A stretch of 64,000 nt of DNA from positions 10,979,001 to 11,043,000 of the forward strand of contig OY727095.1 of NCBI GenBank assembly GCA_963402885.1. The letters are read 5' to 3'. Under the pieces are notes generated by a model, which saw only the letters and a list, made by a program, of their open reading frames with translations, ran no database searches and was not told the origin of the DNA. Shown piece by piece: positions 1 to 64,000 of this stretch (positions are counted from its first letter, which is position 1; each line of letters begins with the position of its first letter). Origin of the DNA: Antedon bifida (taxonomy: Eukaryota > Echinodermata > Crinoidea > Comatulida > Antedonidae). The position numbers and the translations under genes are program-made.

Positions 1-2095
1 AGTAATTTTAGTAAAACTTGCCGCAAAGTGAATAACTCATGTTTTCCGTATTTGTACATGCATATTATATGTATGATTATTATTTTTAGTTATTCATATT
101 TTGCAGAGAACAACCTATGCCCACTTTTCCAGAATTTGTTAATGTATCGGTTTAGATGAACTTTTGAATCAGTGTGACTATGGAAAGTGCCGCCGTGCAA
201 TACAATACATAGTCTACACTCTACAGTATACCAAACTGACATTTCTTTTTCAAATCTTGGCTAATTGTCATACTAATTGAGCTTAAGTGAAAGTAATCTT
301 TTCTGTGGATGGTCATGTGACATGTTGTTTTATATGGACATACATGGAGTGTCTATCGCCCTCTTAGCTCATAGTTTCTTTAGTTCAAAATTGGTACTAC
401 AGAAGTCCCTTTTACTTTGGTCTAAAGTTATCTTATTAAATCGATTCCTTTCCTTGACTTTCTTAAACCTAATAATCCTTTTTAATTTTCCTGTTGTAGT
501 CTAATTGGGTTTAGTTTATTATTATTTGAAAAGAACAATGTATGCATATTTTTAAAAGCAGAAAAACATTACGTCAGCTGAAATCCAATACCATTTTTTA
601 ATAACTCCAGATGAATCATAGTTTGGAGAAACAAATGTTGCGGAATTTAAATATAACATAAACAATATTTTAAACCAAAGGAAAACCTCAATTAAATGTT
701 GACTGGTTAGCTATGTTGAATGATATGTATGTTGTATGTTACTTTGAATGTTTTAACTTAGAAGTGAAGTGGTCTGCCCGGTGTAGCTAGGCTCTAAGAG
801 TGAAGTGTGGCTTCTGCTACAGGCTTCAGTCGCATTTCAGCGGTGATGGTAAACATTTTCTCATTGGGCTAAAAGTTTATTTCATCAATATAAATCTAAA
901 TGCTATAGCACGCATTCAATTTTGAGAAAATAAACCGTAGACATTTTAACAGAACATAACCGTGTCAAACAAGTAGTACGCATGCGCGCAGAAATTCACA
1001 CTATTGAACATATTCATAATTAATTTAATAATTTTATGTAAACACGTACCATTAAATTCCTTGGGGATGTTTATCTGTTTCAAGGTCAGTATACAACAGT
1101 TCTCTGATAAACTTTGTTCACCGTCATCACGTGACCCAGCTGCCAAATATTAATAATTTCTGGCCAAATATTACGGCTATGTTGAAAGATCATATTTCTA
1201 AACACACATGTTTTGTGTACGATTATATTTACATGTATAATTTAGTGAAACCACTTAAGTGTGACAGAATGATACGATTCGTGAACTAAGTGCTCGGTAA
1301 TTACTTAGTAAACAAATTTATTAGAGAGAAAAAAAATCATTCGATAACAACAAATAACAAATATTATAACTATTACAGTATAACTAAATTAAATATAACA
1401 TGATTTTGCCTATTTACTGTACTAATTTGTACGTCGTTTCATCAATCTTCTTCCTTATCGCCTGCCTTTTGTCTGTCATTATTATTAGCCATATTACGAA
1501 AGCAATTGTTGTAAAGAAGTGATTATTAATTTCAATTTTAAATTCTGTGCCTAATTGAAGTTTTTTTCTGATTCTTTTTTTTCTTCTGCATTATTCTTGA
1601 AAATTAAATATTGTATCTTTTTTTAAATATATGTTAGAAACTTTCTCAAGACACTCGTACATGTATAGGAAATTAAAAGCGAGTATCTGTGAGCGAGCCA
1701 TATCATTGATTTAAGCCTTGTTTTCCTTCCTAATAATGTTTTAAGCCGAGTGTATCGAAGCGTACATTCAAATATTAATTTTTACAAGTAAAGAAACTAA
1801 ACCAGTTTTTTTTTATATCAAATTTGCATAGAAGTTGTCTTACTAGTCCGATACCACGGATAAGGAGCGAAATGGAGACACCTCTGACACAAAAGTGAGG
1901 CCTAGAGAGTGACTAAATAAGTGTTGATAATGTCTTATAAACTGTAGAAAACTTCTTTTTACTTTTTTTAAATTTTATTTTTTTCTCTTACAATTTTTAG
2001 TTTTTGGTCGGTATATGGCCTTGTTATTTGCAAAGTTAGTCTATTTGTTTGAGTCTAGGTTATAGACCGTGTTTTGAATTAATATTAGTGAAAAG
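1..2095. other. Intergenic, nothing recognised
   Basis: AT-rich, with homopolymer runs and short chance frames of 66-75 codons. No domain, splice-bounded exon or repeat was recognised. A GCATGCGCGC stretch near 980 resembles an NRF-1 site. Confidence 0.5.
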
Positions 2096-4278
2096 ATAAA
2101 TATTTTGGCACATATGGCGTTTCAAACGTATAATGCTCACAAGCAAAAATTAATGGACTACCATAATATTGTATATAATATAATGTAACGAAATATCGAT
2201 CAAATGTATATATGTAATGATTCATTTCACAATTCTTGTTATTTTTAATATTAACACTACAACCACCACCACATGCCCAATCATCCTATACACATTATCT
2301 AAATCCATTTCTGTTTTTTTAAAAGGTCATGAATCATGCTTAAGGATACGCGTTTATAAATATAAATTTATTGGAAGATTGTGGGTAACCTACATGATGA
2401 TCAATAACTACTCCATTTAACTATTACGTTACCAAGAGTGCAATTTCGTTATATGCGCGTTCATTCTTGTTACTGAATGAGCAACTACGTGCGACACGAG
2501 GCTGTTGACGGATGGCGTTATTATTTACCCACAAACTCACTCGCAAAAGGAAAGATTTATCGTGCCTTAATGTACAGCATTTCGCCAGGTCTGTCTGAGA
2601 GTACTTATTGAGCTTCTGACTTATTATTTTATGATCTCCAAAGAGTTACCTGAAAATGTGATTGAAAAGAAAAACTACATTTCTATGTTATTTGAAAGTA
2701 TTATTCCCGTTGTTTGTCTCCAGCCTATTAGGCTAATAAATGGTACACGTTACAGTCCATCAACTTGAGAATAACAATTATGGATTTAATATTGTAGATT
2801 ATTTCAAGGGGCCTATTTCCTTGCTGGCTAGGCCAGTTTTACAAATGAGCTATTAAACTTTCTGCCTCTGTGGTTTCCACCATGTGCATTATTATGAGTG
2901 AGAATTTATTAACTATTTTAGACAGAGCGGAAAGTTAACTTAATTATTCTGCATGTACATATCCCGTACGCGTTTTGTGAACGAATCATTCTGTCTACCT
3001 TTGTTCAAACTGAATCCTTCACCTTTTTTTTGTGACAAATAACATAATGGAAAGTACAACGTAATACTGTATATACTCTTTAAAATGTTGTAAAGTGTTG
3101 TAAAATGTCATAGAAAATACACTCTATGATCACCTAACTCGCCCGGTGACGAGTTAGTTTGGAAACTATAAATTGGTAAAATTATAAAACGATGAAATTC
3201 TCGCTAAAAATGTTTTATCCATCAGCATGAGTGCACTGTGACTACACACAAGACAGATCGCTATCAGAAGTTTTTAAAAAAAAGGGAAAATCATGTCATA
3301 TATTTTACAATGTATTTACTTTACTTTTAAATACCATAATTATTGTTTGACCTTATAAATAAAATTATTTTATAAAATTAAGATTACCTGTTTTTTTCAA
3401 AAATAAAACTTGTTAAATGCAAACATAAAGGTAATATTTAGTTCAACTTGCACTAAAGACAGTGAAAGTAAAATACTTATTGTATTATAATAATATCTAG
3501 AGAAACGATATAATAAGTTATAATTCCTCTTGGGAAATATTACAAATTTAATCACTGGTATGAATTATGAATTTGCAAGAATTCAATGCGTCCCCTTGCA
3601 TAAGCACTGGATATATCCCTTGAGTTGTAGTATTCAGTCACTATCCCAAACTACACAAAAACTCGCTTTTTCCCTACAAAATAAAATATTTTTATCACGT
3701 ATTTCTGGCATTAGCCCTTATTTCCGTAACTATAAAATACATTGTCCCTCTGATTTTTTTTCTATAAAAGTGTTGTAGAATATGCTGTTATTTTTAATGT
3801 CGCATAGGCCTAATAGTTATTGAGTTTGCCAAAAAAAAAATCGATCGAAAAACAATTATTTACTTGAAAAAAAAACTGTTAAAAAAACGGAAGCCTGTCA
3901 GACAATGGGTTTGTTTGTTACATTTAACCGTTTTTTGTGTGTTTTTTTAGTGAAGTGATTGTTTTCTTTCTTTCTTTTCTTCCGAATTTATTAAAACTAC
4001 AAAATGGTATGTTCTAAATGTTATGCATCTTTATTTTTCATGTTTTGGAGGACAATACATATTTAAGAACAAAATGGAGTTTAATTGATCCAAATTCACA
4101 CTGCCATACAATACTGACATGATCTTACTCCACCTTCTTTGTATTTATTGTCTTTTTTATGTTAGTCCACCTGTCAACGTTTCGATTTTTGTCTGAAAAT
4201 ACATACGTAACGTAATACTATACATAATTGTGAGTATTATATATTTGTATGAAACGCCATATGTGCCAAAATATTTAT
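2096..4278. mobile_element. Possible element bounded by 29-bp inverted repeats
   Basis: Positions 2096-2124 and 4250-4278 are exact reverse complements over 29 bp. The core is TTTTGGCACATATGGCGTTT on the left and its complement on the right, pointing inward. A perfect 29-bp inverted pair about 2.1 kb apart is not expected by chance, and similar GGCGTTTC/GGCGTTCC ends recur elsewhere in the window (27811-27870). The interior shows no transposase: its longest frames are 67 and 82 codons and unrecognised. It could be one non-autonomous element with terminal repeats, or two separate small elements of one family in opposite orientation. I see no convincing target-site duplication. Confidence 0.45.
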
Positions 4279-7200
4279 TTTTGCTAATTACGGACTAGAA
4301 CCTCGTCTATCCACCTTTATGAACACTTGCCACTTTTTAAACGTCTTTAAAGTGTCTTCAATTATTAGCGTATAACTCATGGGATGGAAACTTGGCGCGA
4401 ATTATTGAAACTAAAAAAAAAGACTGATTACTGATTGCCAATGTCCCTACCCTCATAATTCGTGCGTAATGTTAAGAATGTGTGTTATTTTGAAAGTGTT
4501 TTCGTTTAAGAGATTAAGATCCTAGTCCTGATCGCTTGACAGCCTTAGTGGTTGGCAAAGTGCTACTATAGTACTTTTCTACACAAACAATAGAAAAACT
4601 CTGCTGTAGTAGTAGACAGAAGTAATGTAGGCTGAAGTTAAAATAATTCCAGTGGCTTCAATGTTACTGGAGTAGGCGTAAAGCATCATGTCAATGGCTG
4701 CAGAAAAGTACATTGCCTCAGTTTACCAGCCAATAATTTGGCCTACCGAATGATTAAATTGTTTTTTTGTACCCCCTCAACGAATATGTCCAGATTAGTA
4801 TTTTAGAGGAAATCAACAGTCAATTTGAATCGCAAAAGTTCATCTCTATAGGCCTATCATTTGGTAAATGATAACACAACAAGCTCGTTATCGGACCATC
4901 TTACTTTTAATACGATACAGTCATAAGGAAATGTCATAAGAAATTAGAGTTATAATTAAAACGCTTCTCGCTTTAAGATTATTGGTTTAAACTTTAAATT
5001 AGATTTCGAACATTTTTATGACCAAAAGTCTTAATAGAAAAAAGTTGTCATCAAAATTCGTATGGTAATCATTGAGTAGGCCTACTGACATATTAAGAAT
5101 AAATAATATGAGGGAAGAGTGAAATCCCTGATGTATTTTATAATGTGTACATTATTAGATTTGCTCAAAAGCTAACAAATTTAGCAAAGAGACCATCATA
5201 ATGAGTGAGAGCCTCAATAGTATTTTCATATAGGCCAAACTAAATTCTTTAAAAAAATATATACAACGTCAATTAATATCAAAAGCGTTGACCGAATTGT
5301 TGTTGTTGTTGTTTTCAAGTCAACTTAGTGTAATATCTTAATACTTGGTTCCAACCAACGCCACAAACATCACATTTTTTTCTTTTTTTAAAACTTGGCA
5401 ACGCCAACAACTAGTAACATAAGCCATTAAGGTAAAAAGTTGTCATAACATGGTACGGGGCTTTTATATAATACTTTGTTTTGTAAAACTATACCAAAAT
5501 ATCATAACAAACAATTTAAGTACATTTGAACTGTTACTGAATGTTTGTTTCATTTCCTTCGTCTGGTACACAATCGCCATAATTAAATAAACCATATTTA
5601 TGCAAGTCTTCGTCTGAAATAAGTTATCTAGCAATACAACTATTAAGAAATAAATAAGAATTTTTAATTTCGAAATCGAAAGCTGTCTGCCCCAGGCGTA
5701 GTAAACACTGTAAAACACTTGTCTACTGTTGATTCTCAGGTACACCGAAACTGGTTCAGTTTCAACGTAAACTATATTGATAATTTGAACTTTGTGAGTC
5801 AATACACTCATGAATAAAATTCCACATTTGTAAACATAGATTTCCTTTTGTTGGTTTGTTTTATCCTACTACTGCAAAAAAAACTGAAAGTTGCGGAGTC
5901 TTGATAAAAAAACACACATTTTATTTTTATTATTGACTAAGTATAGTATCTGATGATTAATTTAAATTTCTCATTCAGTTTCTATTGTAAAACAATTATA
6001 AGCTAGACATGATCTAGATAGTGTAGTTGGCCTCATCGTAGAACGTTGTCCAGCTATTAAAGTATTAGGGTTATAATCGCAATCTAGACTAGAACTATAA
6101 AACGACTTTTATTTCTGTAATGATTCATTTCTTTCGTACCTTACTTATGAATTCAGAAGCCTGATTTATTTTAATGCGATAGAGAAGCCCACGGGACCTG
6201 TATTACAAGTCACATCATATTTCTCTATGCTTAGCTCTCTTCATCGAAGTTAATTTCCTCTGTTTCTTCGTTTCATATATCTGTCAAATTGATGGCTAAA
6301 TCCATTTTGTTTGTATGATGTTTTCTCGCCGGCCCTGTTACTTTTCAAATATAGCTTTTCTTTTCATAGAATGAAGTTCAAAGTAAACAGCTTATATTGT
6401 GTTATCTTGAAATGCCAGAAGATATCAAATGTAAGGGCATGAATCATGAAGAAGGCCGGGGCGTTTTGCTCCGTATTTGTATTCAGTAATCTGCACATTA
6501 ACACATTCCACGTAGAAAATGGCACGTAATGATCACACCAACGTAGGCCTATATGACTTAATACTATATTTAACCAGGTCCCTGATTTAACACTCTTTAA
6601 CCACATGTTTGTAACCCGACCTTAAAGTTGAAATACTTATACGATATAGATTCATTCAAGATGATTTACAAATTCAATTAGATACACATAGAACAACTCT
6701 ATGTTTATACTAACAAAAATAAGAAAAGAAAAACTATAGAATTTATACTCGAGCATAAAGTGGAAGTGCGCCACCTATGATAATTATTTCCAAATTTACC
6801 AAAGTAAAATAATTATGATTATTATGTTTATGTCTTTAGTATGCTATGATTGCTAATCTAAGTATTTCAGTTTTGATTTCTTTTATCTACATTTCTTTTC
6901 TTTTTTTAGTTACTAATCCTGAACTGTACAGTAATGGCTATGGCGATCTGAACAATCTCACGAAAATGGTCTATAAAAAAACTACAGAATAATCCGTGAG
7001 GATGCAGTTGTGTTATTTTGTGCATTATAACTCAGTACAAGTTATTTCTGCAGGAATAGGGAATTGTGCTGGAATTAGCAGAAGTTAAGGTTTCGGTTCA
7101 GTACCGTACAATACTGCATGATGAACTATATTAGGTTAGTACGTTTTTGTTAATAAATGTCTTCCTTTCAGAGCACCTTTTGTAGAAACTATATATTGAG

Positions 7201-7750
7201 GTTGATGATGAAAGTAGGGCAGGAAAGTTCAGGAGCATGCGCAACGCGTACTTGATGCTGATTGTCTACAGGTGTGACAATAATATTATGTTTCTGTCTT
7301 ATTTATGCTTTAATGAATCGGGCAAAAAAGTGGACAACGAAAAGTAGATATACGGTTTTTCTTTTAATATGACTTTGCCAAAGATTTTATATAGCTTATT
7401 TACACCTCTCTGGACTTTGCTGTTGTCTTGCAATTTCGTTATTTAGTCGTAGCCGGTCGTATAAATGGGTCTTATGTTAGAAGGTAATAATTAAGGTCTG
7501 TTGATAAGGACGACACGACACAAAAACAGAATTTTACATTACACTCGATTCATTATATTTGTTTTGAAATTTATCTTATTTTAGTTACATACATTGTAAT
7601 GATCTAGTCAGACTTTTTTCTGCAGACGATCAGTTGTATTTAAATCAGTGTTTGCCAACGTTGCCCTTAGTAACAACGATACTCTATGTAATTGGACGAC
7701 TGCCGAGCTACTGTTTCTTGATTCATAGATTTTTAAAATTGATTTCAGAA
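4279..7750. other. Intergenic, nothing recognised
   Basis: AT-rich DNA with a (GTT)n run at about 5298-5314 and three TAGGCCTA palindromes. The 115-codon minus-strand frame at 5464-5811 has a low-complexity, hydrophobic translation with no motif. A GCATGCGCAACGCGTACT string near 7235 recurs, with one base inserted, near 18318. Confidence 0.5.
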
Positions 7751-8185
7751 AATTCTTGGCAAATGAGTGTCTTCATTGTATCTTTCAATGCGTCACCTCA
7801 AAACACAATGCAACATATCATACGACGTCACAGAATTTATAAACCTGTAGAACAAACCAATAATTCAATATGCCTAAGTTCATGCTTGTTATAGTTAGGC
7901 CTACAACAACATGATATTATTTTCATTTAACATATAGAAAGCTGAAAGTTTAACAACAAATTAATACGGAAGAATTCTTGTCAAATGAGTGTCTTCATTG
8001 TATCTTTAAATGCGTCACCTCAAAACACAATTCAAAATTTTCATACGACGTCACAGAATTGTATAAACATGTAGAACAAACCAATATTTCAATAGGCCTA
8101 AGTGCATGCTTGTTATACTTGATATTATTTTCATTTAGAATATAGAAAGCTGAAAGTTTAATCAAAAAAATATACGGAAGAGATA
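7751..8185. repeat. Tandem duplication, about 222-bp unit (2 copies)
   Basis: The segment starting AATTCTTGGCAAATGAGTGT at 7751 is repeated from 7973 with scattered substitutions and a deletion. Shared landmarks include AATGCGTCACCTCAAAACAC, CATACGACGTCACAGAATT and a TAGAAAGCTGAAAGTTTAA end. Each copy carries GACGTCA, a CRE-like core. The copies are diverged, so the duplication is not recent. A 86-codon frame in copy 1 is not kept in copy 2, so it is not coding. Confidence 0.85.
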
Positions 8186-10029
8186 AAGGTATAAGGAAAA
8201 AGTCTGAGAAATGTTTATTGTCAATACATTAAAAAAACAAAGACAAGTGGACAACAACAGTAACAAAGAAGCTGTAATAGGATCGGATCTTAACTTCTGC
8301 TAGCTTGTTGTTTTTTTAATCTACACCAACATATAATAGTAAATACATTGCTTATAATAAATAAGAAATATGCTTAATTACATGAGTTGATAGTATTTAT
8401 TGTTACAGTTTCAAATAAGTTTTCATCTAAACATTTTTAACAGAAAAGAACTGCCATAACAAATAATAACATCGTATTTTGTATTTCAAGTAGCAACATA
8501 ATAATTATTTACTGTTTTCATAAAGTAAAACAGAAAAAAAAAGTTGTGTTATGACTGTATTTGTTTATATTCGCAGTGTGAATAACGTTGATAATAACAA
8601 ATATTACTACACACATGACTATGTGTCAAGGGAAGCAATTTATCTGTATGTGTAATGTTAACACATAATAATTCTTAGTGCTAAATGATTGCTCGTACAT
8701 TTTGTTATGGTTTGTGGCGTCGAAGAATGACATAGTAGTACAAATGATCACGTAGAATGCATTCGGATGCTGGCCTCGTGTCCGATAAGCCATTTGAATT
8801 CCCCCATTTATCGGCGCGTGTGACGTTCGTCCTTTACGCGTACGCATGACCATTCGTCCGTATCAACAAGTCGCATTCATTAATGTATTAACCTTTCTTC
8901 AGTTTGCAGTAGTCACTCTGTTTAGCAATTTGCATAATTTAACTAAACTGATATTGTATATATTAAATGGTGGGTTGACCATAATAAGAGCAAAGCTTTG
9001 TTGTCTAGAGAGGTGTAATACGTTGGGCAGAGACCTGTAACAAGAGTGTGCTATCCGTTGTGCGGGCTCAAAAGCAGGTATAAAACCAACATCCGCAGCT
9101 ATGTGTTCCCGAGAGTAAATCGTATAATTGACGAATGACTACATGTATTCGAAAACTCGTCCCCTGTGCTTGAGTTGTCAGACATCCGTGTAAGTCTCTA
9201 ACACACACGGCAGAAGTAATTATTCAAGCGTATGACCGCCCGAAAGAAAATAAAAAATCATTAGCCTGGGGCTTCAGACACACCATCATTGGCCTTCCCC
9301 CACCACACCACGTTATCTCCCAGATTGTCGCGTCTAACGCTTTCCTACAGACAAGTATTAATATTGTTGAATATGATTTCCTTTTTATTTTTACTTGACA
9401 TATTTTTGTATTTAAAGAACAGGGTTGTTAATCATAAGCACAGCCTATGATAAATGTGCTTAATTATGTACATACGGTTCTTGAATCCTCAAAGGCTAGG
9501 CTGCTAACTTCTATGTGAAAATGTATTCCCGGTTGATTTTGTTCATGTAGTTTTCAATTGGTACAGAACTATGTACATCCACCTACTTTTGACATTCCCA
9601 AGAAAATTAAATTAGAGCCTTTTTTCGTTATTAATACGATGTACTTTGATAACCATATAATATAATTAAGGTAGGCCTATAACATTTAGCTATAAGTAAA
9701 ATACTGAATTAAGTGATTAAAAGTTTATTATTAGCCTACTATTATATTTAACAACATTTTTATCCAGCAATTGATTGCCTTATTGTCTTACGGTTACTTA
9801 ATATGTAGGCCTATAGGCCTAAGACACTTTCATTCTTTATGTAGGGAAATGATCTGTATGAGAGCCACGCCTCATTATCTCCTCTTTCTCTGTCAGTTTG
9901 GTATTACTTGCTTTGTATGCAAGATAACGTCCACAATGTTTAGTTATCCGTCCTGAATTTGTTATTAGAAATATACATAACACAATATTAATCATTAAGC
10001 TGGGCTCTTGGAAGGACGTAAGTGCAACA
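8186..10029. other. Intergenic, nothing recognised
   Basis: No gene seen. The part at about 8760-9340 is visibly richer in G and C than its surroundings, but no splice-bounded or conserved frame could be made out. Confidence 0.45.
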
Positions 10030-10110
10030 TAAAGCTAGGTTCCCACTAAGACCCTTGTCTTGCGCGTACGAATGTGTTGTGCGTTGTGTCCTAGTCTGAA
10101 CCAAGCTTTA
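10030..10110. mobile_element. Small MITE-like foldback element
   Basis: The left end TAAAGCTAGGTTCCCACTAA (10030 on) is the imperfect reverse complement of the right end GTCCTAGTCTGAACCAAGCT (10088-10110), about 19 of 23 positions paired. The interior includes TTGCGCGTACG and TGCGTTGTGTC. A related end, TGCGTCCTAGTGTGAACCAG, preceded by a CTTGCGCGTAAC string, is found at 57412-57456. This indicates a dispersed non-autonomous family. Confidence 0.55.
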
Positions 10111-11930
10111 ACACTTTAATAATATAAGGATTAAACTTATCAATAAATATGTACTTTTTACTGAGTAATACTGTAAATGGAATAGACCGATTTAATCTGC
10201 TAATACAGGGTTTGCTACGGATTTCCGTCGGCTTAAATAATATTCTGACCTAGCGTTTGAGAAGATTATTAAATAACTTTTTAAAGCTTTCACACTAAGC
10301 ATCGCTTGTTAGTACCCATCAAAAATACAACAATAATATCTATTATTGATATCTATTTATACCCCAATATTATTGATCAAGGACACTGTGTCAGTTTTGA
10401 CCATTGCTGTATTAGACAGGATTAATATTGTCTGATTTTAAGGTATGCTCTTGTCTATATTTGCTCAATCAAAAGTTATATAGAATTATAGACTGATTAA
10501 AATTGTAATTTTGTATAATCCTTGTCCTTGATTTTGTATCTTGAACTTGAAAATAAACTATCAATGTCTTGACCTTGTAGCTATCAGTGACAACAGGACA
10601 GAACAAATTAAAAATGTATCTATGAATTTCATTAGTCACAGTAATTGGTTAAGTTGTATGTGTATTCATGTTTGTTTTGCCTTTAAATACTACAATTAGT
10701 AGTTGGTAGTAGGCCTACATACACGTGATAGAGGAGTATTAAAACGATGAAAAAGCAGTCATGGGTCCTTTTCCAACGAATCGGAACGTAAAGCAACTCT
10801 TGCTGGTTTCCATAACAAAGTGACTCAACTGGTAGAGTTGTTAGCCCAACGTAGTGGTAAACACCAATGGACAGACAAGACCAGAACCCCCTTTTGAGAA
10901 AGCAAAAGTAGTATCTAGGCTAGTATTGAAACACATTTTCTTTTCCGTGTATATTTGTACAAATTCTCAGCAAAATGTTAGGCTTACAGATGTTTTCATA
11001 TTCGTAGATTCGTAAGTCTTGGTTTACTAGTTTATTAGCCCTTACAAAATCCACCAGAACTCTCTTCGCTTCCATGACCGTGGATACTCCATGACATGAA
11101 CAAGACACTGAGACTTTTACGCAGATTTATAAACTTACTAGCGCCCTCATCATATCCTGAACTTCTAACTTTATAAAAGTATCGCCGAATCCAGAAGGTA
11201 CCCTAAACTTTCTAGGAATACCGAATTTCAATGGCATTTCTACCTGTTAATTTTGTTTTGTCTGTTGCCATTTTATCTACGTTTTTAAGCTGCTCTGTAT
11301 CGGTGATATGTTAATGTACATCATCTTTGCTATCTAAAAGTAGGCCTACTCAACCAGTGAAGGAGGATTCCTACAGGTACTCTTCGTTACTTCCAACAAA
11401 AAATGCCTTATGAGTCAATTATTTTTATCTCAAAGTTATATTTGACTACGTGTGTCTAATTATATGTGTCTGTAGTATCCAGTGGCAGCTGATCATCTTT
11501 CTGATTCAACTTTCCTTTTCCGTTGCCAAAACCACATACGGACTGAAACCAAATTAGATGATCCGACTTTGTTTGATAAATAGCATGTTTGCAGATATGT
11601 AGAACCTTCGTTGTAAATTAAATAACAGTTATACTAATATCAATAAGATCCTAAAATTATACCGTAAATGAACATTATATTCAATAATATTTTCTAATCT
11701 GCTAAATCCAAAGAGTAGGAGGTAGTTTAAGAATCTTTCCCATGGTCATTTATTGTTAGTGAACCTCCCCAGACACGAATGAATTTCCTGCGTTCTCGCC
11801 CCGATCCATTGATCTCTCATGTGCTTTGCATCATGCCTTCTTTCTCAACAAATCTTCAATATACAAAATATAGGCCTTGGTGTTTCCTCTAATACTGTTT
11901 CGTTTTTGCTTTCTTTATTCCCTGTGCATT
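10111..11930. other. Intergenic, nothing recognised
   Basis: No gene seen. The text around 10833-10860 resembles a tRNA A-box but has no matching B-box or cloverleaf, and 10500-10560 faintly resembles a LINE 3' end. Neither is strong enough to annotate. Confidence 0.45.
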
Positions 11931-12168
11931 ACGCCAAATCTACTATTTAACCTATTTTAATACACTATAGTTGGGTGGTACGAACGATATGTCGCAGTCA
12001 TAACCCAATTTATGCATACCAACTATCTTGTCAATATTGAGGTATGGTAGACGCCAAATCTACTATTTCACCTATTTTAATACACTGTAGTTGGGTGGTA
12101 AAAATGATATGTCGCAGTCATAATCCAATTTATGCACCAACTATCTTGTAAATGTTGAGCCATGGTAG
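11931..12168. repeat. Tandem duplication, 120-bp unit (2 copies)
   Basis: ACGCCAAATCTACTATTT at 11931 recurs at 12051 with about 10% substitutions along the unit. Both copies contain TACACTxTAGTTGGGTGGTA, ATATGTCGCAGTCATAA and CCAACTATCTTGTxAAT. It has no coding character. Confidence 0.85.
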
Positions 12169-50953: not shown

Positions 50954-50995
50954 CATGGAGAAATAAGTTAGCTTAACTTAACTTATTTCTCCATG
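50954..50995. repeat. Perfect 17-bp-stem hairpin
   Basis: CATGGAGAAATAAGTTA (50954-50970) and its exact complement (50979-50995) flank the 8-nt loop GCTTAACT. In collagen intron 1. Confidence 0.9.
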
Positions 50996-53900: not shown

Positions 53901-56241
53901 TGTGGATAACATTCGTAATGTGTATTCTCACTGTATCAAGTTAAATGAGAGATAGATAAAATTAATTCAAATTAATTTATACAGTATTGCCAACTCACCG
54001 TTTACTAGACTAAATTAGGTTTTAATATTTTATTGAGGGTGGTTCATGGACTAAATGTTGATACAAATTACTGCAGTTATTCCATTTTTTTTCCATATTA
54101 TAATATTAGATCTATAACAAAAAATTCCAATTGTCGAGCCAGTTATGTTAAACCTTAGCAAGAATATTAGTTATGTTTTCATAGACTTTAAAAACGCTTA
54201 CCATGTATGGGTTTAAATTAGTTGGCCTTTAGAATATTTTATTTTTCTATAGCAAGATTAATTAATTAACCATGATTAAAATAGTTAGTATTGATAGGAG
54301 ATTAAAATAAAAAGAAGTAACAACATAAAAAATAAACATTAATAAAAAAAAAAATTAATTCACTTACAAAAATGCAAAACAAATGGTGTCCAATTAAAAA
54401 ACACATTGTCTGGCCACTTGCTTGTTTTGCTTTAAATTACAGTTTTTTCAGGTAAATAATTTTGAATTATAATTTTATTTGAATGGAATTTATTTTCACA
54501 GATAGATATAATCTATATATATATATATATAATTATAAGTAATAATTGATAATGCTTACATTAATGTTTCATGATTATGTGATATTTTGATTTTAACATT
54601 TAGAAGTTTTTCAAACAAACCGTGATTCAACCAATTAATGTACTGATTTCAGTTATATTAGCAAAATACAACCACAATATCATTATTGCTATTGTATTTT
54701 TGGTCGTACAATAATTATTTTGAAATTTTGAAACTTTGTATTTAATTATTTTGTCTAGTTCTAGCTTTCCTTATCGGTTAAAACAGTCGTCATTTTTATA
54801 TAACGGTCTTCCTTACTATGATTCATGTTTTGTACCTTTGCAGTCGATAAAAAAACTATTTAGTTGTACTGTGTAGACCTACTCCTAAACGGTTTGGTTA
54901 TTGAGACATACTCGTCTCTCCTCGTCCTAATACTATTTAATTATTCTTCGCAAAATTGGTCGTTATTTTTAAAAATTAATATAGGATATTTAGAATGTTG
55001 CAATTAATTAGAAAAATACGCTAAATTATTGATATCAATAGCCGTTGTTTTTTTAGGTCACATGAGATTTTGTTTTTATATGTAAAACTTTTTGTTTACA
55101 CCAGCATTCCTCGGTAAACCTGGGTAAACTACGTTTTTTATTGAGGGCGCAATTCAACTTATGAATATTCAAAATCCCAGTCCTTGTTAGCGTTAAAAAA
55201 AGTTTAAGAGAGTTTAATGCCCTCGAATCGAAAATAATCTCTAAAGAGAAGTTTACTGTTGCCAGAAAAAAAATATTCATGTATTTTTTTGTAAATAATT
55301 ATTTTTCCATATTTTCGCAGTCTTTTGATGATTTAGTTCGTTAAATTTACATTTCTTTGTGAATTAAACGTATACAATACAAATAGTCCTTGGAATAAGA
55401 AAAAAAATTAAATATTTGGTTTTGATAATCTTCTGGGGTATCATTGATCGATGGTTAAAACTTGAGGTCAACAAATCAAATAGCGTGAGAATTGGTGAAC
55501 GTCTGCAATGATCATCAACGGTTTAGATGGCCTGTATCCGCTCATGTCTAGACCCATAACTGTATTATTGGTTTCATTGGTAGGTAGACCCTTTTCTGAA
55601 GTTTAAAGTTCAGTATAGGAATATTGAACAACCGTCAGATAACAGATCAGATTTATATATCGTATTTTAAATACTTGAACAACAAACAACAAGTAACCAT
55701 ACTTTATTGACCGGATCACATAAAGTTCTCCCACGCATCTTCACATTAAATTTATGGTTTATTTTGGATGCTAATTGAGCGTAGTAAAAACCGAAGAGTG
55801 ATTTTGAGGATCCTACATACTTATTTTTCATTTTTATATATAACCATATTAATGGAATAACTTTGGAACCCAATAGTCTCCTCTTAAAAGGGGTGTCTAT
55901 TTAAGGGATTGGCCGTAGTGTAGATATATTTCTCCATGTTATTGTTATGTTAGTTTCACGAGAAGTTTTACAACATACAAGTTGTTCCCAGCATGGGGGT
56001 TTTACTGCATTCAACTTTAAACGAATGAGCTCTTTACAAGATTTAATCTACAAGAAGATTCTGTTTTTACAAATTACTTTTGCACTATTAGCATTATATG
56101 TACAGTAGTTCAAGATGCCAACAATTATTTGACATACTTGGCAGACGTTTGCTCTGCTTGTGATGTTATTATCATAGGAGGTATTGTCTGGTTAAAACAA
56201 CCGCAAACCACTCGTGTTAAATATAACGTTTGTTTTTTAAA

Positions 56242-56305
56242 TAAAAGTTAATACCTTCTGAATTATTGTATTATAAAAGTTAATACCTTCTAAATTATTA
56301 TGTTC
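56242..56305 (+). repeat. 32-bp direct repeat, 2 copies
   Basis: TAAAAGTTAATACCTTCTGA then ATTATTGTATTA is repeated 32 bp later with two substitutions. Confidence 0.85.
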
Positions 56306-56535
56306 AGTAAAGTACAGTGCGTTGATAAATATCCTCAAAAGGCTTTCGTACGCACTTAAGTTCGATTTTGTTAAAATAACAAATAAGCTTACTTCCCACC
56401 ACACACTCAATAATTCTCCAGCCAAGATCAGTTCTTCATAACTTTATGAAGTGATAATTGCAGCAATAGTATAAACAATTACAAAGTAATGTAAACATTA
56501 TAAGTTCTGTTTTTTTTTTTACAAAAACGATACAA

Positions 56536-56672
56536 AATTCAAATTCAAATCAACATTTATTTCCGAAATGGTGGCGTCGCAAAAAAAAGCAAAAGCTTGT
56601 GTCAGGGACGCCAAAACAAAACATTCAAAATCAAACAAAACATATATAAAACACAGAAATAAAAATAACACG
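56536..56672 (-). mobile_element. LINE 3' tail (-), CR1-like
   Basis: On the minus strand: GTTTTGGCGTCCCTGACACA, an A/T stretch, GCGACGCCACCATTTCGGAA and ATAAATGTTGATTTGAATTT. The AATAAA-plus-TTGAATT ending is typical of CR1/L2-like elements. The GGCGTCCC...GCGACGCC pair could form a small stem. No coding part is left. Confidence 0.5.
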
Positions 56673-57093
56673 TAAAGCGGTACATTTCAATTGCAGTATA
56701 TATCAAATTAAAACATTTTCAATTGCTAGAGGTAAATATATTAACAAAAAACAAACCAACGACTGAAAAGTCTCATTGGATTTCTGCAAAAAGGAACCCA
56801 TAGTCAACTGCTATGTTTACATGTAAATTATTTCATTCACTGGAAACGAGTTGTATTTTAGATTACCTCAGTTCAAATCGAAATAAGTAGGTTATGTTGA
56901 GACAAAGTATCCCCCGTGCTGTTTGTCTAGCCACTGCTATAAATAAAAGTACAACTTTTATTATGTACAGTGAAGTCTATTCGGTATCTTAGTTTGACAT
57001 AATTAGCCTGGCAATAATTGAATTTGTAATATTTTGGAGTAAGTCAATATTGTTAACTCATTGCCGCTTTAAACAATGTATTTCGTTTTACTG

Positions 57094-57287
57094 TACTGAA
57101 ATGAGGCCATCTTGTCTTTCCATGGTGCATAATTATATATATATATTTAAAGTTTAGTTTATGGAATGTGAACTGTATTTGTAGTCATTTTACTGAAAGG
57201 TGGCCAACTTGTCATTCCATGGTGCATAATTATATAAATGTTTTTAAAGTTTTGTTTATGAAATGTGAACTACTGTAGTGTTGATGT
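57094..57287 (+). repeat. 97-bp direct repeat, 2 copies
   Basis: ACTGAAATGAGGCCATCTTG then TCTTTCCATGGTGCATAATT recurs 97 bp on as ACTGAAAGGTGGCCAACTTG then TCATTCCATGGTGCATAATT. Both copies end TTTATGxAATGTGAACT. Confidence 0.85.
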
Positions 57288-57411
57288 TTTAAGTTTATTT
57301 GTTCTTCGAAGTTAATCAAATGACAAAAGTGAGAATGCTTGATTCTCGCAAAAATGTAACCAATGATAAGCGACTGTTCATCCGAACTTTCCCCAACGAT
57401 TGGTCGAAATA

Positions 57412-57456
57412 CTTGCGCGTAACTCTTACGTTGCGTCCTAGTGTGAACCAGGTTTA
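57412..57456. mobile_element. Partial copy of the 10030-10110 MITE family
   Basis: CTTGCGCGTAAC followed by GCGTCCTAGTGTGAACCAGG and TTTAA resembles the right half of the element at 10030-10110. The other end is not recognised. It lies in intron 1 of the collagen gene. Confidence 0.4.
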
Positions 57457-58932
57457 ACGAGGATACCTTCACGCAAACCTTCAATGGAAAAATTATGTTT
57501 GAATCAAATAATAAAAAGTAAATTGTACGGGGAGCCAATCAGGGCATTGCTATTTATGTCACCATAAAAAAGCTAGACACAAATACACTTTCTTGCATAC
57601 ATACCGTAGTTTGTATACTATGCCTGGTACCTACAAATTATTATAATTGGATGCGTAATTCAATAAAATGTATGAAAAAATGTGGACTATAGATAGTTTT
57701 CAGGATTCCATAATTCTCATTAAAATGCGGATAAAATCCAGACGAGTAGACGACCCTGGTACATAAGGGCTCTTATGTTGAATTATTTTTTCAGTGTTTA
57801 TTAATTGAGGAGATATTTTACAGATGCACACCGTACAGCAGGATATAAAGTGAATGACAATTACCATTTACAACGCTTTGGAAATTTGTTCAGTTTATTA
57901 TTTGACAGAATATCGCGTGGTTGACGAAATATGCTGCTTACCTAGCCATAATATATTCTTCATTTGCAAACACTTTGCAAATGCGAGAAAGTTTCTCAAC
58001 AGTTTTCTGTGTAGACAAGTTGACAAACTTCTCCACATTTCAGAGACAAGTTTGCAGAAGTTTCCACTAGAAACATTTTCAAACTCTAGCAAACCCCAAA
58101 TTTACAAACAAAATTGTGGTAGTTTGCTACTTCTAGTCCCGCTTTCCAGTGTAGACCAAGATTTTAGCAATGCTTATGTACGGTACCTTAATAAAGGAGA
58201 AAATGTGTTATAACTTGTAGGAGCTGTCTCCTTTCTAAATGTTTGTTTATTTTCGTAGTTACTAAAGTTGTTTTGCAAAAGTGTTGATAGTACTGAGAAT
58301 TACATTGTTTGTTTAGTAGTACCCTACAATTCGAGAATTAAAAATAAATCATCGAAGAGTAATGTTAACCGTTATACCTTTCTTCCGTATTCCGAGTGGT
58401 TAACCTAACATTGTCTAGGCCTGCATCTGATGTCATGAGGGTGAAACATTAGGTTGGGTGTTCTTTCTCAATTCATTCAAGAACACTTATGATGTCATCA
58501 CGTAATGTCTGCAAGTCCAAGTTGAGGAAGCTACTATATCACTTTGGTTTTAGACAGTGGTATACTATGAAATATATTTTAGTTCGAAATATCTCACGCT
58601 TTTCCATCGGAATGACATGCTATCCCATTACGTTCGAGCGTAATCCCAATATCACATTTCACCAGCCTACCTTCTATTGATATAAAATTAATATTTAATT
58701 TTAAAAGTGTTTGAATCTCTGTGCAATTCATGCTGCGTGAATCTCATGATAAAGACGCTTTTACAGTATTTCTCAGTTTGAAGTTGTGTAATTCAATTTG
58801 TATTCTTGTATTCAGAGCACAAAAATAGCTTTTGTTAAAGTTTAGTGACGACATTGATTTGGAATTTCATGAAAATCACTATAATATAATAACGACCGAA
58901 ACAGATTGTTTCTCAGTGTGCGTATAGAGTGA

Positions 58933-59394
58933 GTGGATTTAGGTATGTATGTAATGTATTCAAGAACAAACTCCATTGACAATGTCAGATATCATAAGAC
59001 ACTGCTGTTTGATGTATTATTAAGTACTCCAGCTAGTGTAGAGATGTTTTTGTCCCGTTGCTGTAACCTTATTTGCCATCACTTTAGAAAAAACTTTATT
59101 CCATGTAATTTTCAGAAAATTTACAAAACCCTACGCACGTATGTCCACGCGAGCGAGTCTCGTTGCGCACATTACATGACTTACCTAGCATTCGTCAATG
59201 ACGAATACAGAACCAGATTTAAGCTAGTAAGAGACCACGGTGTAGCGTATGCAATGGTTGGCAAATCAGTGACAAATCCGATAGTTCATTCTTTCGTAGT
59301 GCAGTTATCGTCTTTCCTTTTCTTTAGCAATTATTTTCTAAACTTTTTGATGAAATATAAAGATCACCTTGTGGTAAGGGAAGTAGACGGTTGA
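58933..59394 (+). other. Unexplained 153-codon open frame in collagen intron 1
   Basis: Open from 58933 (first ATG at 58945) to a TGA at 59392-59394. It is the longest frame in the window outside the minisatellite. The product is rich in Cys, His, Phe and Arg, with a hydrophobic stretch near the end (SFVVQLSSFLFFSNYFLNFL). No family was recognised, no splice sites are evident, and it ends about 430 bp before exon 2. At about 33% GC I estimate a 5-10% chance of one such frame arising by accident in 64 kb. It may be a transposon fragment, a nested gene or chance. Confidence 0.2.
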
Positions 59395-59823
59395 GTTTAT
59401 TACGGTATCGTTACCACTCGATTGATTTACTGGAAGAATATTGTACGATCGTAAACAATAACAAAAATATTAATGACGTGTTTGATGTACATAAAGGAAG
59501 GAAATAGTACATTCATTCAAGCAATATATGACAGCTTTTAAGAAGTACATATTTGTTAACATTATAGACACTTCAACTACCCTAGTTATGTGTATAACCT
59601 TAGTCTTTGTTAGTTTTTGGAAGAAACATATTTTATTCTACTATAAATTGTACAGTACTTTAAAGAATGCATGGATGAGGATTCTATCCATGCAAGTAAC
59701 AATTATGGTCTAAAATCTAAATCCTTGCATCTTAACACTTACATCACATAAAGCTGAAAGGGTTTTTAAAATTTGTTCAATACTCTTTTCCAACACTATA
59801 TATAATTATTTTCTAATTTATAG

Positions 59824-59997
59824 GGTCAGTCGATTTACTACAAAAATTAGGCATACCTAATCTGCCAAATCATGTAAGTGAAGATGTTGGTATCTGCGAG
59901 CGACGGCCGAAGTCAGATGGTACTTCAACTCAAGATACAGCTTTTACAGTTGCTAAAAAGGCCAGCTTGAGTGAACCATCAAATCAGGTTTTTCAAG
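59824..59997 (+). CDS. Fibrillar collagen exon 2: start of TSPN/laminin-G domain
   Basis: 174-bp exon entered after TTTATAG and left at CAAG|GTAAC, phase 1 to phase 1. It encodes residues 40-98 of the chain. It opens GSVDLLQKLGIPNLP, continues through GICERR, and ends AFTVAKKASLSEPSNQVF. This follows the start of the thrombospondin N-terminal-like domain of vertebrate alpha-1(V)/alpha-1(XI) collagen: a D-[VL]-L-x-x-L opening, a G-[IF]-C motif (C64 here), an acidic and basic stretch, and an A-[FY]-x-V-x-K-x-A-x-L-[ST]-x-P-[ST] segment. In the family this N-propeptide domain is the globular head that limits fibril diameter. C64 would be the first disulphide cysteine, with its partner in a downstream exon outside the window. 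The fit to V/XI rather than to collagens IX, XII or XXVII is from recalled family features, not an alignment. Confidence 0.9.
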
Positions 59998-60447
59998 GTA
60001 ACAACCTTTTCTTCTGTTAAACTATCCTCGTATCAAAAATCAAGCGAACTATATATACTAAATACATGGTGAAACTAAAATGTTGTATGTATTCAGTATT
60101 TGCAAGTCCTTTAAATTGTGTTATCAATATGTATAAATACAAACAATCTGAACTACACTATTTAGGAGTTCTTATCTGCTCATTTATCCGAATTGTATAG
60201 AGCTCCTTACAGAATACGTAGATGGCAACCAATGCAAGTCCGCTGGCTACAATCCCCACCTTATGGATTGGACTGAAAAGATATTAGCATTATTACATAA
60301 CAAACTAGAGCAACTCTACTTAAAGTAACTGATGTTTTGCACCGTAATTTACGCACAACTGATGTGGACGACACAAAACATTTTTCTATCCATAACTCTG
60401 AGTCTAATAATAATAATTGAAATGATATTTTATTGCATTTCTTTTAG
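59998..60447 (+). other. Intron 2 of the collagen gene (450 bp)
   Basis: Starts GTAACA and ends in a pyrimidine run followed by TTTTAG. It is AT-rich and contains no other recognisable element. Confidence 0.85.
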
Positions 60448-60661
60448 GTGAATATGTACCTGAAGAGTTCTCTTTAATCATGACATTAAAAGCAGATCCT
60501 GTAAAACGTAAAGCATTCCTTTTTACTCTATACGGTGGAAATGGCCGGCCGAGGTTTGGTATTGAAATAGGAAAATCATCAACAAAATTCCACTATGTCG
60601 ACTCTATAGGCGATCTAGGAGACAGTTCACCCGTATTTCCATTTACTCTTGCTGATAATAA
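60448..60661 (+). CDS. Fibrillar collagen exon 3: TSPN/laminin-G domain, middle
   Basis: 214-bp exon after the pyrimidine-rich acceptor TTTCTTTTAG, ending at the donor AA|GTAAGT in phase 2. The last full codon is N168 and the next would be Lys or Asn. It encodes a GEYVPEEFSLIMTLKADP start, then KAFLFTLY, a GRPRFGIEIG strand, and ends PVFPFTLADN. These match successive beta strands of the V/XI TSPN domain: [FY]-P-E-[DE]-F-S-[IL] opening, F-L-x-[ST]-[IL]-Y, G-[IV]-E-[VI]-G, and the L-[SA]-D-x-K end that precedes a W-H-R exon in vertebrates. That W-H-R exon was not seen before 64000, so intron 3 continues past the edge. The 450-bp intron 2 separates it from the previous exon, and the G|GT junction restores a glycine. 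The first ATG in this exon (60480) is internal, not a start. Confidence 0.92.
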
Positions 60662-63600
60662 GTAAGTTTTTGTTCATTATATTTGTAAATGTATATTGGT
60701 GTGTTAAGATACCGTATACAATGTACGGTATACATTATTAGAAAAGTAGACAACTAATGGTGTAGGCCTACAGGTACAGTAATCAAACGTTTGGAAGTTA
60801 ATTTGTACGTACGTTTAATTTCTGATTTTGAATAACTTTAATTAATGCCAGTATTCAGTACACACTAATTTAAATTCAATAATCATACACTGATCCCAAT
60901 AACACCGTATCATTTACATAACCCTTTCTATACATTAACGAATAATTACACAGCGCCATCACACTTCCATCGAGGTTACACTTTTTATTTCACCTTTTAT
61001 TGAAAGAGTAAATGAAACATGATGAAGAATTATTCAACTATAGACGAGGATAACCGAATTACATGCTATCCTGAGGGATATAACATGATTCAATATTTTT
61101 TTCTACACTTGATTGTTCTTTAAATTTAGTGGCAATATAAAGGGCGACGAGGTGTCGACCGGTGTTTAATATAATCACTAAGGTTAACCCAGTGCTGGAG
61201 GCAACATGTGCATCTACCCGACTATCATATTCCTCGTTTTAGGCAAAATCAGTTTATGAACGCCTCATTTATCCATTATTTTAGTAAATCATCAGTAAAA
61301 TTATCACTTTTGTGACACATTTTGCTGCTGCGCGTTTGAAAAACACAACAAGGGACTTTGCTACTCGACTGGGGACTTGAGTTAATAATAATTTATAGAG
61401 CGGCATATATGACGTCGACAAGAGTTCATTAAAGGGTTGCTGACAGTTTTTTTTTTGGAAATATAGTAAAGTGATTGATAGAATGATAAATTTAGTCATT
61501 TGACAGAAATCGATTAATAAATAAACTACCAAGACATCACGTGAAAGCATTCGACACATTCCACAACGAAACAGGTTTTCCTGACGATTTTGTCTCAACT
61601 GTTGATTGGTAAAGACCATTTAAATTCTCATTCAGGTTTTTATGCAAAGGTTATGCTACCTCATGACCTACTATACGACATGGGATTAACTGACCTAATT
61701 GTTGGGTATATACAGATTATCGAATTGAAATACACGTACAGACACTGATGATTAACACTTACAGAAAACGAATCTTATTTTTAAATACTATAGTATTGTT
61801 TGTGATTTAAAATACAAAATTCTTCCAACCAAAGTTAGGACATGAGAAAATAATCGTCCCCTTCATCTACCTATTAAAATGGGTCAAATCTTTTCCCCCA
61901 TAGTGATTATTTTAATTAAAATTGGTTGTGCATGCATATTTTACAATAGTGAAGTCCAGTGTATTGGTTTGGTTGACATAATTATACTATTATAAGCCTA
62001 TAGAGGAATTTGAGAGTAACCCAATGAATGATATAAATCTCTGTCTTTCAGTTTAAGTAGCTTAGTCTTACCGACAATTTTTAGAGAATTGGACAATACA
62101 TAATGCATTTGTACAGGGCCTCAGATTGTAGTATAGTATAGTATTTGTAATATGAAAAGAATTGTTTGTTCAGAGCAGTGTGGTTTTAAAAATGTGATTA
62201 ATATCCGACAGTATAGTTGGTTCTCGTGTCGCTGAGTTTTCTTTAATAGACCAACATGCTATTGTTGATCTACCCCTGGAGTACACTTAAGCTAATTGTA
62301 ATCTCATACCGATTATGGTTAATATTACCTCGAGATTGTCTGCCACGAGAAGTGTTGGCCCTTTGCCACCATGTCCTGTACTAAGATCATAAGCTGTATG
62401 ACAATTTCAGTAGTCTGATATGATTTAAGAAAATCGGGTCAAGACTTATATAATAACTTAGTAAAACTTTGTAAAGTTTTAACCAAAACATAAATATTGG
62501 CGATTGCCAATTTTTTCTGTGGGAGCGGAAGGTGTAATCCAGTTAGTGAATTGGATTAACCTCATGTAAACAGGTTGATAATTGCTAAGCTGATATGAAA
62601 GACCAGTCGTGTACAGCAACCATGACGTTCAGAAATAAAATCGAATTACCGTATACCGTCATTTTTAATTTAAATTAAAAATTGGTGACTATAGTATCGC
62701 GCGCTAAACTTCAATGAAGTTTAAGAAAAGACATTTAAAATGAAATATAACCAGTTATTATATTAATAATATATTTACCATGCAGTTCAGCTCCTACTCG
62801 ATCCTACAAATGTATATTTTGGCGTCCCATAGCAGTAATTTCATTTCAATGATTTTGTTATAGTTACGGTATTATAAATTGTGTAGGCCTACATTTTCAA
62901 ATTGTAAACTTATTGTATACTTTATACAAACAACTTTGATATTCATAGGAATGTCTTCATGTGCTGATTCATTTGAACTAGTCGTATGCATTTCATTAGT
63001 AATTATTCAATTAAATAATTATACATAGGCCTACAGCATCAATTATCATTATCAATATTTACTAATAAATAGTAATTATGAGACCTTACTTTCGTAATAT
63101 TGACAATTTTCAACACCGCAGACAAAAATCTGGAAATTTATGCAATTAACTAAATTAAATATGGATAGTAAACAGATATATTTATTGAAATATGACAGAC
63201 TTTACAAGGTAAATGGGTTGTTGATTGACATAATTCAGTCAGTATTCGCTTTCACATCTGAATAATCTTTCTGGCACGAGGTGTCTCTGGACTTTAGGAT
63301 GTTTTGCTTTTTTTATATAATTAGTGATAGGTTCCATAGCGTGTCATTTGGAAGGAAACAACATTTTTAACCTTTGGTTGTTGCCTAGTTTTAGTGAAAA
63401 TGTCTAGATGTTTAAAAAGTTGTTTGAATGTCACGTAGACCTATATTAGCAACATTTGTTCTGCCACCAACTGTTTATTAAGACGGGCCTCAATTAGTAG
63501 TATAGTAGGCCTAAGTATTGTACAGTATAAAAAGAATTTTTATTTTTGTGTAAACATTTATTTTGTTTTCGTTTGTGCTACTTGTTATTTGTTTTCTATG

Positions 63601-64000
63601 TGTTATATGACAATACTGTAACGTACGGTGACATTCAATAAAGAAATACCTGTAACCAGTTCATTCATCAATTTTTTACAATTATGATCATTTTAAAATT
63701 AATATTTTACACACCGACTCATGATTCTTTCACTGGTTTTAACCTTCAGTAAAGGAACCAGTATGTTTGCCACGTCATCAGTCCCTGGGATTGTAGTATC
63801 AGTACAGGTGTCGTGTCACTGGTTGTAAGGACTTGTGGGATAGCATTATCATTAGGTGGCCCGAGTCACCTAACCGATTATTTGAATACAAATGTCTATG
63901 CAATTATTCAAACATTATTTAAAATGCATTTCCAATTATTAAGTACTGTATATTATTATCAATTTCCGCTGCTATTTGTACATGCTAATTTCTCTGTTTA
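60662..64000 (+). other. Intron 3 of the collagen gene, 5' part (open at window edge)
   Basis: Begins with a GTAAGT donor. I searched for the expected next TSPN exon (a W-H-R/K start followed by hydrophobic strands and the second cysteine) and did not see it, so the intron is at least 3.3 kb. It holds a perfect 22-bp A/T palindrome at 62661-62682, four TAGGCCTA copies (about 60763, 62884, 63027, 63506) and a fragment like a LINE polyadenylation end near 63635-63650. A 112-codon minus-strand frame at 61281-61619 has no recognisable features. Confidence 0.7.

What the first reader, a model, noticed from the sequence alone, without database searches (positions are those of the whole stretch)
1..64000. 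TAGGCCTA palindrome is enriched more than 50-fold and unevenly spread
I counted about 42 exact TAGGCCTA by eye (for example 4852, 9807, 9814, 15383, 22954, 33553, 60763), often extended to GTAGGCCTAC or ATAGGCCTAT. At this base composition under one is expected. About 35 fall in the first 37 kb, only about 3 in the 19-kb collagen intron 1, and 4 in the last 3.3 kb. Such an excess of a self-complementary octamer could reflect a targeting site of a mobile element, a factor-binding or chromatin motif, or a mutational bias.
Basis: seen in the sequence. Interest (0 to 1): 0.7.

Follow-up and report, generated by a model that had tools for sequence, protein, structure and literature searches.

The report
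Iterated TAGGCCTA palindrome, origin unknown
One exact eight-letter self-complementary word turns up about eighty times more often than chance in this stretch of gene-poor DNA, nearly always at unrelated spots, which points to a process that keeps making or keeping that word rather than to a copied repeat.

Summary
Confirmed. TAGGCCTA occurs exactly 42 times in 64 kb against about 0.5 expected, the highest z-score of any 8-mer. The other 15 palindromes with a GGCC core total 0 against 4.4 expected, so this is not a general GC-core effect. The copies share no flank except a G/C preference one base outside the core (39 of 84 sides), so they are not copies of a dispersed repeat. One-mismatch words are mildly enriched (38 against 13.6), two-mismatch words not (144 against 164). 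The spread is uneven: 35 before 36.4 kb, 3 in 36.4-60.7 kb, 4 after. The poor stretch has 16 one-mismatch words against 4.7 expected, as if sites had decayed there. In a simple model, ordinary mutation with weak selection cannot build 42 sites; moderate selection needs about 1-6 substitutions per site. I therefore favour an active, sequence-directed process, comparable to the cyanobacterial highly iterated palindrome HIP1. A strongly selected binding site and, less likely, transposon excision footprints remain open. Genome-wide count, species and the collagen gene could not be established: the genome server did not complete (13 requests).

The parts
3805..3812 (.). TAGGCCTA
4849..4856 (.). TAGGCCTA
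5077..5084 (.). TAGGCCTA
6544..6551 (.). TAGGCCTA
7896..7903 (.). TAGGCCTA; lies in a 16-bp indel absent from the neighbouring duplicate copy
8093..8100 (.). TAGGCCTA; the duplicate copy at 7869 reads TATGCCTA (one substitution)
9672..9679 (.). TAGGCCTA
9806..9813 (.). TAGGCCTA, abutting the next site
9814..9821 (.). TAGGCCTA
10710..10717 (.). TAGGCCTA
11341..11348 (.). TAGGCCTA
12685..12692 (.). TAGGCCTA
12851..12858 (.). TAGGCCTA
13320..13327 (.). TAGGCCTA
13610..13617 (.). TAGGCCTA
15382..15389 (.). TAGGCCTA
20182..20189 (.). TAGGCCTA
20616..20623 (.). TAGGCCTA
20648..20655 (.). TAGGCCTA
21830..21837 (.). TAGGCCTA
22024..22031 (.). TAGGCCTA
22245..22252 (.). TAGGCCTA
22649..22656 (.). TAGGCCTA
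22954..22961 (.). TAGGCCTA
23316..23323 (.). TAGGCCTA
25888..25895 (.). TAGGCCTA
26637..26644 (.). TAGGCCTA
28173..28180 (.). TAGGCCTA
28208..28215 (.). TAGGCCTA
30298..30305 (.). TAGGCCTA
32566..32573 (.). TAGGCCTA
33552..33559 (.). TAGGCCTA
33821..33828 (.). TAGGCCTA
34656..34663 (.). TAGGCCTA
36180..36187 (.). TAGGCCTA
44575..44582 (.). TAGGCCTA
46149..46156 (.). TAGGCCTA
53219..53226 (.). TAGGCCTA
60763..60770 (.). TAGGCCTA
62884..62891 (.). TAGGCCTA
63026..63033 (.). TAGGCCTA
63506..63513 (.). TAGGCCTA
1..36400 (.). motif-rich stretch: 35 exact sites (0.32 expected), 20 one-mismatch words (8.2 expected)
36401..60700 (.). motif-poor stretch: 3 exact sites (0.17 expected), but 16 one-mismatch words (4.7 expected, p = 4e-5)
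7736..8181 (.). local two-copy duplication, 85% identical; the only aligned repeat found that covers any site

Best explanation
TAGGCCTA is an iterated palindrome: a sharply defined self-complementary word, with a mild outward preference (mostly G before and C after), that has been created independently at many unrelated places and is young or kept. Shown: the excess, its specificity for this one word, the random flanks, the independence of the two outer bases, and the thin cloud of near-misses. Inferred: a dimeric protein that reads the palindrome (symmetry and half-site independence suggest a dimer) acts on DNA during repair, recombination or modification so that near-miss sequences are resolved toward TAGGCCTA and existing sites are restored. 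This is the kind of process proposed for the cyanobacterial HIP1 (methylation-guided mismatch repair, PMC4390886). Inferred further: between 36.4 and 60.7 kb the process is weaker or has ceased, so sites there have mostly decayed to one-mismatch forms.
For: 42 against 0.51 expected, Poisson about 10^-64; largest of 100 shuffles 2. Other GGCC-core palindromes 0 against 4.4. Flank positions 2-5 and 7-10 at background, and of 26 self-alignment rows kept only two, one pair read both ways, cover any site, so copies are independent. Outer bases act independently on the two sides: 13/19/10 sites with 0/1/2 G-C sides, 12.1/20.9/9.1 expected. The near-miss excess is 24 at one mismatch and none at two for 41.5 excess exact sites; prolonged neutral creation and decay would give ratios of 1.20 and 1.40 after one substitution per site. 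In the supply model the window cannot reach 42 sites at scaled selection 0 or 2 (equilibria 0.6 and 4.2), and needs 5.6, 1.7 and 0.9 substitutions per site at 4.4, 6 and 10, so production must be boosted or selection strong. One duplicated pair shows a one-base difference between TATGCCTA and TAGGCCTA.
Against: No protein, methylation or recombination evidence; nothing is known here about the genome outside 64 kb. The second site in the duplicated pair differs by a 16-bp indel, not a substitution. A one-mismatch ratio up to about 0.9 per exact site is not excluded, so moderately prolonged neutral creation also fits that class; the two-mismatch expectation depends on the Markov model. The boundaries of the poor stretch were chosen after seeing the data, and the longest gap alone is not significant (p = 0.11). 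Scaled selection of 20-30 would need only 0.5-0.3 substitutions per site, so a strongly selected binding site predicts much of the same.
Confidence: 0.38

Rival explanations
1. TAGGCCTA is the binding site of an abundant chromatin or architectural DNA-binding protein; sites arise by ordinary mutation and are kept by natural selection at hundreds of places per megabase.
For: Sharp symmetric motif with an outer G...C preference; fewer near-misses per exact site where exact sites are dense. Scaled selection of 20-30 could build the excess in 0.5-0.3 substitutions per site.
Against: A density of 0.66 per kb is very high for individually selected sites; at scaled selection 10 it still needs 0.9 substitutions per site. 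The near-miss excess is not confined to tolerated positions (12/2.5, 7/2.7, 13/4.7, 6/3.7 for positions 1-4), unlike a degenerate factor motif.
Confidence: 0.25
2. The words are footprints of excised TA-targeting (Tc1/mariner-like) DNA transposons: TA plus GG and CC from the two element ends plus TA.
For: The word has the form TA-N4-TA; two TA-N3-TA words are also above second-order expectation, TACAGTA 43 against 17.1 and TACCGTA 25 against 6.0. One site lies in a 16-bp indel between duplicate copies.
Against: The partial footprint TAGGTA/TACCTA is not enriched (33 against 37.7) and TAGGCTA/TAGCCTA only twofold (12 against 5.9). Against the maximal-order model TACAGTA and TACCGTA are only 43 against 30.0 and 25 against 18.4. 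TACNGTA does not follow TAGGCCTA along the window: 34/26/8 against 35/3/4 in the three stretches. No element with GG...CC ends was identified, and no transposase domain in the frames scanned.
Confidence: 0.13
3. An old, lineage-wide compositional quirk or remnant of an extinct short repeat, now inert.
For: The near-miss excess in 36.4-60.7 kb looks like decay.
Against: Over the window the near-miss cloud is thin and two-mismatch words show no excess, which argues against age; flanks carry no remnant sequence.
Confidence: 0.14
4. A local peculiarity of this window or an assembly artefact.
For: Only 64 kb seen; uneven distribution.
Against: Sites are spread over most of the window in unique sequence, with ordinary base composition around them (31.5% GC in flanks); no shared vector- or adaptor-like flank.
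Confidence: 0.1

Closest known systems
HIP1 and alternate HIPs of cyanobacteria (GCGATCGC and others; PMC4390886: abstract, section list and 12 passages seen)
   Same: One palindromic word in great excess, spaced at around one per kilobase (the paper's model saturates near one per 1000 nucleotides; here 0.66 per kb, 0.96 in the first 36.4 kb).
   Different: HIP1 sits in cyanobacterial genomes and goes with cognate DNA methyltransferases; this window is AT-rich, gene-poor DNA with minisatellites, and no methyltransferase link could be tested.
Tc1/mariner excision footprints (recalled; no call)
   Same: TA-flanked short insert.
   Different: The expected partial footprint is not enriched.
DRE/DREF palindrome TATCGATA of Drosophila (recalled; no call)
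   Same: An 8-bp palindromic chromatin-factor site.
   Different: Different sequence; I recall a far lower density, concentrated at promoters.
ZFX/ZNF711 motif AGGCCTAG (recalled; no call)
   Same: Shares the core AGGCCTA.
   Different: As I recall it, ZFX has G after AGGCCTA; here that base is G on only 4 of 84 sides.

Membership tests
Cyanobacterial HIP | A single palindromic word far above expectation | tested here: met
   42 against 0.51; next palindromes by z-score CGCATGCG 4 against 0.12 and AACCGGTT 7 against 0.64
Cyanobacterial HIP | Genome-wide dispersal near one per kb | tested here: inconclusive
   0.66 per kb in this window; genome server not answering (13 requests, last is)
Cyanobacterial HIP | One-base deviations biased to the outer positions | tested here: inconclusive
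   Observed/expected by position 1-4: 12/2.5, 7/2.7, 13/4.7, 6/3.7
Cyanobacterial HIP | Cognate DNA methyltransferase in the genome | not testable with these tools
   No genome available; no Pfam family found in the frames scanned of this window
Dispersed repeat or MITE | Copies share sequence beyond the core | tested here: not met
   Flanks at background beyond the first base, except position 6 p = 0.014 uncorrected; one duplicated pair only
Tc1/mariner excision footprint | Partial footprints (TA plus one overhang plus TA) also in excess | tested here: not met
   TAGGTA/TACCTA 33 against 37.7; the defining feature is recalled
Arthropod telomere head-to-head junction (TTAGG/CCTAA; recalled) | T directly outside the core | tested here: not met
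   T on 17 of 84 sides, G on 39
ZFX site AGGCCTAG (recalled) | G directly after AGGCCTA | tested here: not met
   4 of 84 sides

The most novel reading that the evidence does not exclude
A eukaryotic (probably animal) genome contains an active, sequence-directed mutation or repair drive that writes one 8-bp palindrome roughly every kilobase, a eukaryotic counterpart of HIP1, and that is switched off or weakened over some tens-of-kilobase domains, where the sites decay.
Probability: 0.27. Interest if true: 0.87.

Novelty: new variant of a known kind. Interest (0 to 1): 0.58.

Why it matters
If the excess holds genome-wide, some molecular process in this lineage reads and multiplies one palindrome without any visible mobile element. 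That would be a new source of sequence structure in eukaryotic genomes, would make the unresolved question of how HIP-type words arise testable in an organism with recombination and population data, and would mislead motif-discovery and repeat-annotation tools that assume such words are bound or copied.

Tried and rejected
Dispersed repeat: rejected by random flanks and self-alignment (E 1e-3, at least 35 columns, rows starting in the three tandem arrays dropped; 26 rows kept, 2 of them, one pair read both ways, cover a site; recount). General GC-core palindrome excess: rejected. Palindromic extension beyond the core: 18 of 42 complementary at position 1 and 18 at position 2, against 14.2 and 13.6 from independent columns, not convincing. 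Tandem arrays: the three arrays masked in the counts hold no site (42 remain after masking). Short-range clustering beyond local density: not significant (18 gaps under 500 bases against 13.9, p = 0.065). Co-occurring 6-mers near sites: best z 4.0, uncorrected. Structured RNA or tRNA: none. Solved-structure search: one frame of 51-64 kb, nothing.

Site triplets gave 11 viral and 27 prokaryote stretches. Of the 39 loci tabulated many are short tandem repeats and most others one tight cluster; none shows varied, dispersed sites like this window. They were judged by site count, spacing and flanks, not by similarity to the window.

Papers: ten searches, with capped lists (182 papers hold TAGGCCTA; 20 were listed, 40 of 67, 40 of 115). 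In what was listed I saw no report of TAGGCCTA as an over-represented genomic word in animals; most listings were judged by title and start of abstract only. Passages were seen in PMC12431861 (guide oligonucleotides). In PMC1838430 one section was read: AGGCCTAC, GGCCTACA and TGTAGGCC are among the octamers more exceptional in 'loops' than 'backbone' in a study that names E. coli; that is a bacterial, non-palindromic case. PMC2275977 (rainbow trout RAG region) counts the word once, but its held text is 203 characters and could not be read. I recall that TAGGCCTA is frequent in some fish or echinoderm sequences; no call supports this.

Corrections: one search timed out and was rewritten. The second-order expectation (0.74) was inflated by the sites themselves; one search masks them. 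TGACGTCA counts 7 and 4 after masking of the arrays. An earlier count said that TACNGTA has the opposite distribution to TAGGCCTA; the recount (0.93, 1.07 and 2.42 per kb) shows only that it does not follow it.
Full report
OBSERVATION. TAGGCCTA occurs 42 times in the 64,000 bases. Expected numbers are 0.46 (first-order Markov), 0.74 (second-order, sites not masked), 0.51 (second-order, strands pooled, sites and three tandem arrays masked) and 0.52 (100 dinucleotide-preserving shuffles, largest 2). It has the highest z-score of all 8-mers present. A 37-kb scan statistic gives p = 0.007, while the longest gap alone gives p = 0.11.

SPECIFICITY. The other 15 palindromic 8-mers with a GGCC core total 0 against 4.4 expected; the next palindromes by z-score are CGCATGCG (4 against 0.12) and AACCGGTT (7 against 0.64). 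One-mismatch words total 38 against 13.6, by position 12/2.5, 7/2.7, 13/4.7, 6/3.7; two-mismatch words total 144 against 164. The base one step outside the core prefers G (left) or C (right): 39 of 84 sides, with 24 A, 17 T and 4 C, against 18% G, 34% A, 34% T and 14% C next to TA elsewhere in the window (p = 2e-10). The two sides are independent (13/19/10 sites with 0/1/2 such bases; 12.1/20.9/9.1 expected). Positions 2-5 and 7-10 are at background; position 6 has p = 0.014 uncorrected.

NOT A COPIED REPEAT. Self-alignment of the window finds only one duplicated pair that covers any site, a local duplication of 85% identity at 7736-8181. In it, the site at 8093 faces TATGCCTA in the other copy (one substitution), and the site at 7896 lies in a 16-bp indel absent from the other copy. 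Direction cannot be told without an outgroup.

DECAY AND DOMAINS. If sites were created neutrally and decayed for one substitution per site, one- and two-mismatch forms would stand at 1.20 and 1.40 per exact site. The observed excesses are 24 and about -20 for 41.5 exact sites. A one-mismatch ratio of 1.0 is rejected at P = 0.01, but ratios up to about 0.9 are not, and the two-mismatch baseline rests on the Markov model. The sites are therefore young or maintained. The stretch 36,401-60,700, poor in exact sites (3), has 16 one-mismatch words against 4.7 expected from its own composition (p = 4e-5), while 1-36,400 has 35 exact and 20 one-mismatch words against 8.2. Exact against one-mismatch differs between this stretch and the rest (3/16 against 39/22, p = 0.0004). 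The stretch was delimited by its lack of exact sites, so that p-value is optimistic; the one-mismatch excess itself was not used to choose it. The simplest reading is that sites existed there and decayed.

SUPPLY. About 13.6 background one-mismatch words are the pool from which a site can arise by one substitution. A simple gain-and-loss model gives an equilibrium of 0.6 sites at no selection and 4.2 at scaled selection 2; reaching 42 takes 5.6 substitutions per site at 4.4, 1.7 at 6, 0.9 at 10, 0.5 at 20 and 0.3 at 30. Weak selection on ordinary mutations is thus unlikely; either production is boosted or selection is strong. The model ignores linkage, demography and turnover of non-coding DNA.

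MECHANISM. I favour a directed process (repair, conversion or modification guided by a protein that reads the palindrome), at 0.38. A strongly selected chromatin-factor site is next (0.25). Transposon footprints were attractive because the word is TA-N4-TA and because TACAGTA (43 against 17.1) and TACCGTA (25 against 6.0) are also above second-order expectation. But these two are much less striking against the maximal-order model (30.0 and 18.4), the partial footprint TAGGTA/TACCTA is not enriched (33 against 37.7), and TACNGTA does not follow TAGGCCTA along the window: 34/26/8 against 35/3/4 in the three stretches (before against after 36.4 kb p = 0.0005).

CONTEXT. The window has 33% GC, CpG observed/expected 0.87, three minisatellite arrays, no tRNA or Rfam match and no Pfam family at E 0.1 in the frames scanned: both strands of 1-10 kb and 24-64 kb and the plus strand of 10-24 kb. 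The minus strand of 10-24 kb was not scanned. The same stop-as-X method found HTH and Peptidase_S24 domains in a prokaryote control locus. That the organism is a eukaryote, probably an animal, is an inference from this texture.

COMPARISON. The closest known phenomenon is HIP1, GCGATCGC, in cyanobacteria. Elhai (PMC4390886; abstract, section list and 12 passages seen) links it to methyltransferases and proposes that methylation-guided mismatch repair creates and maintains such words up to about one site per 1000 nucleotides; he notes that gross over-representation need not imply selection for function, yet regards selection as the simplest explanation for the persistence of HIP1 itself. What is seen here is like that in count, sharpness and spacing, but membership cannot be claimed: no methyltransferase link was testable, and the outer-position bias of deviations is inconclusive. 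In ten paper searches with capped lists I saw no report of this word as over-represented in an animal genome; the library holds only open-licence papers, and one rainbow-trout paper that contains the word could not be read.

LIMITS. Everything rests on 64 kb and 42 sites.

Noticed in passing
whole window, 68 places (list): The odd palindrome TACNGTA is 3.4-fold over shuffles (68 against 19.95; 0 of 100 shuffles reach it) and does not follow TAGGCCTA: 0.93, 1.07 and 2.42 per kb in 1-36.4, 36.4-60.7 and 60.7-64 kb.
   Followed up: partly
48095-49632: Six of seven AACCGGTT words cluster within 1.6 kb around an 88-bp, 97% inverted repeat (48644-48731 and 49076-49163); possibly a fold-back element with repeated TAACCGGTTA.
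   Followed up: no
979, 18318, 26323, 28306: CGCATGCG, which I recall as the core of the NRF1 site, occurs 4 times against 0.12 expected.
   Followed up: no
16690-17810: A 42-bp minisatellite of about 17 copies, open as a 323-residue stop-to-stop frame on the minus strand.
   Followed up: no
L141, 555-2148: Oceanobacter sp. contig with six TAGGCCTA sites within 1.6 kb; a frame about 3.6 kb further on in the same locus reads HTH_3 and Peptidase_S24 domains, as in phage repressors. Whether the word is an operator there was not tested.
   Followed up: partly
33138-33255: A 118-bp imperfect palindrome: two 59-bp arms, 92% complementary, with no spacer.
   Followed up: no
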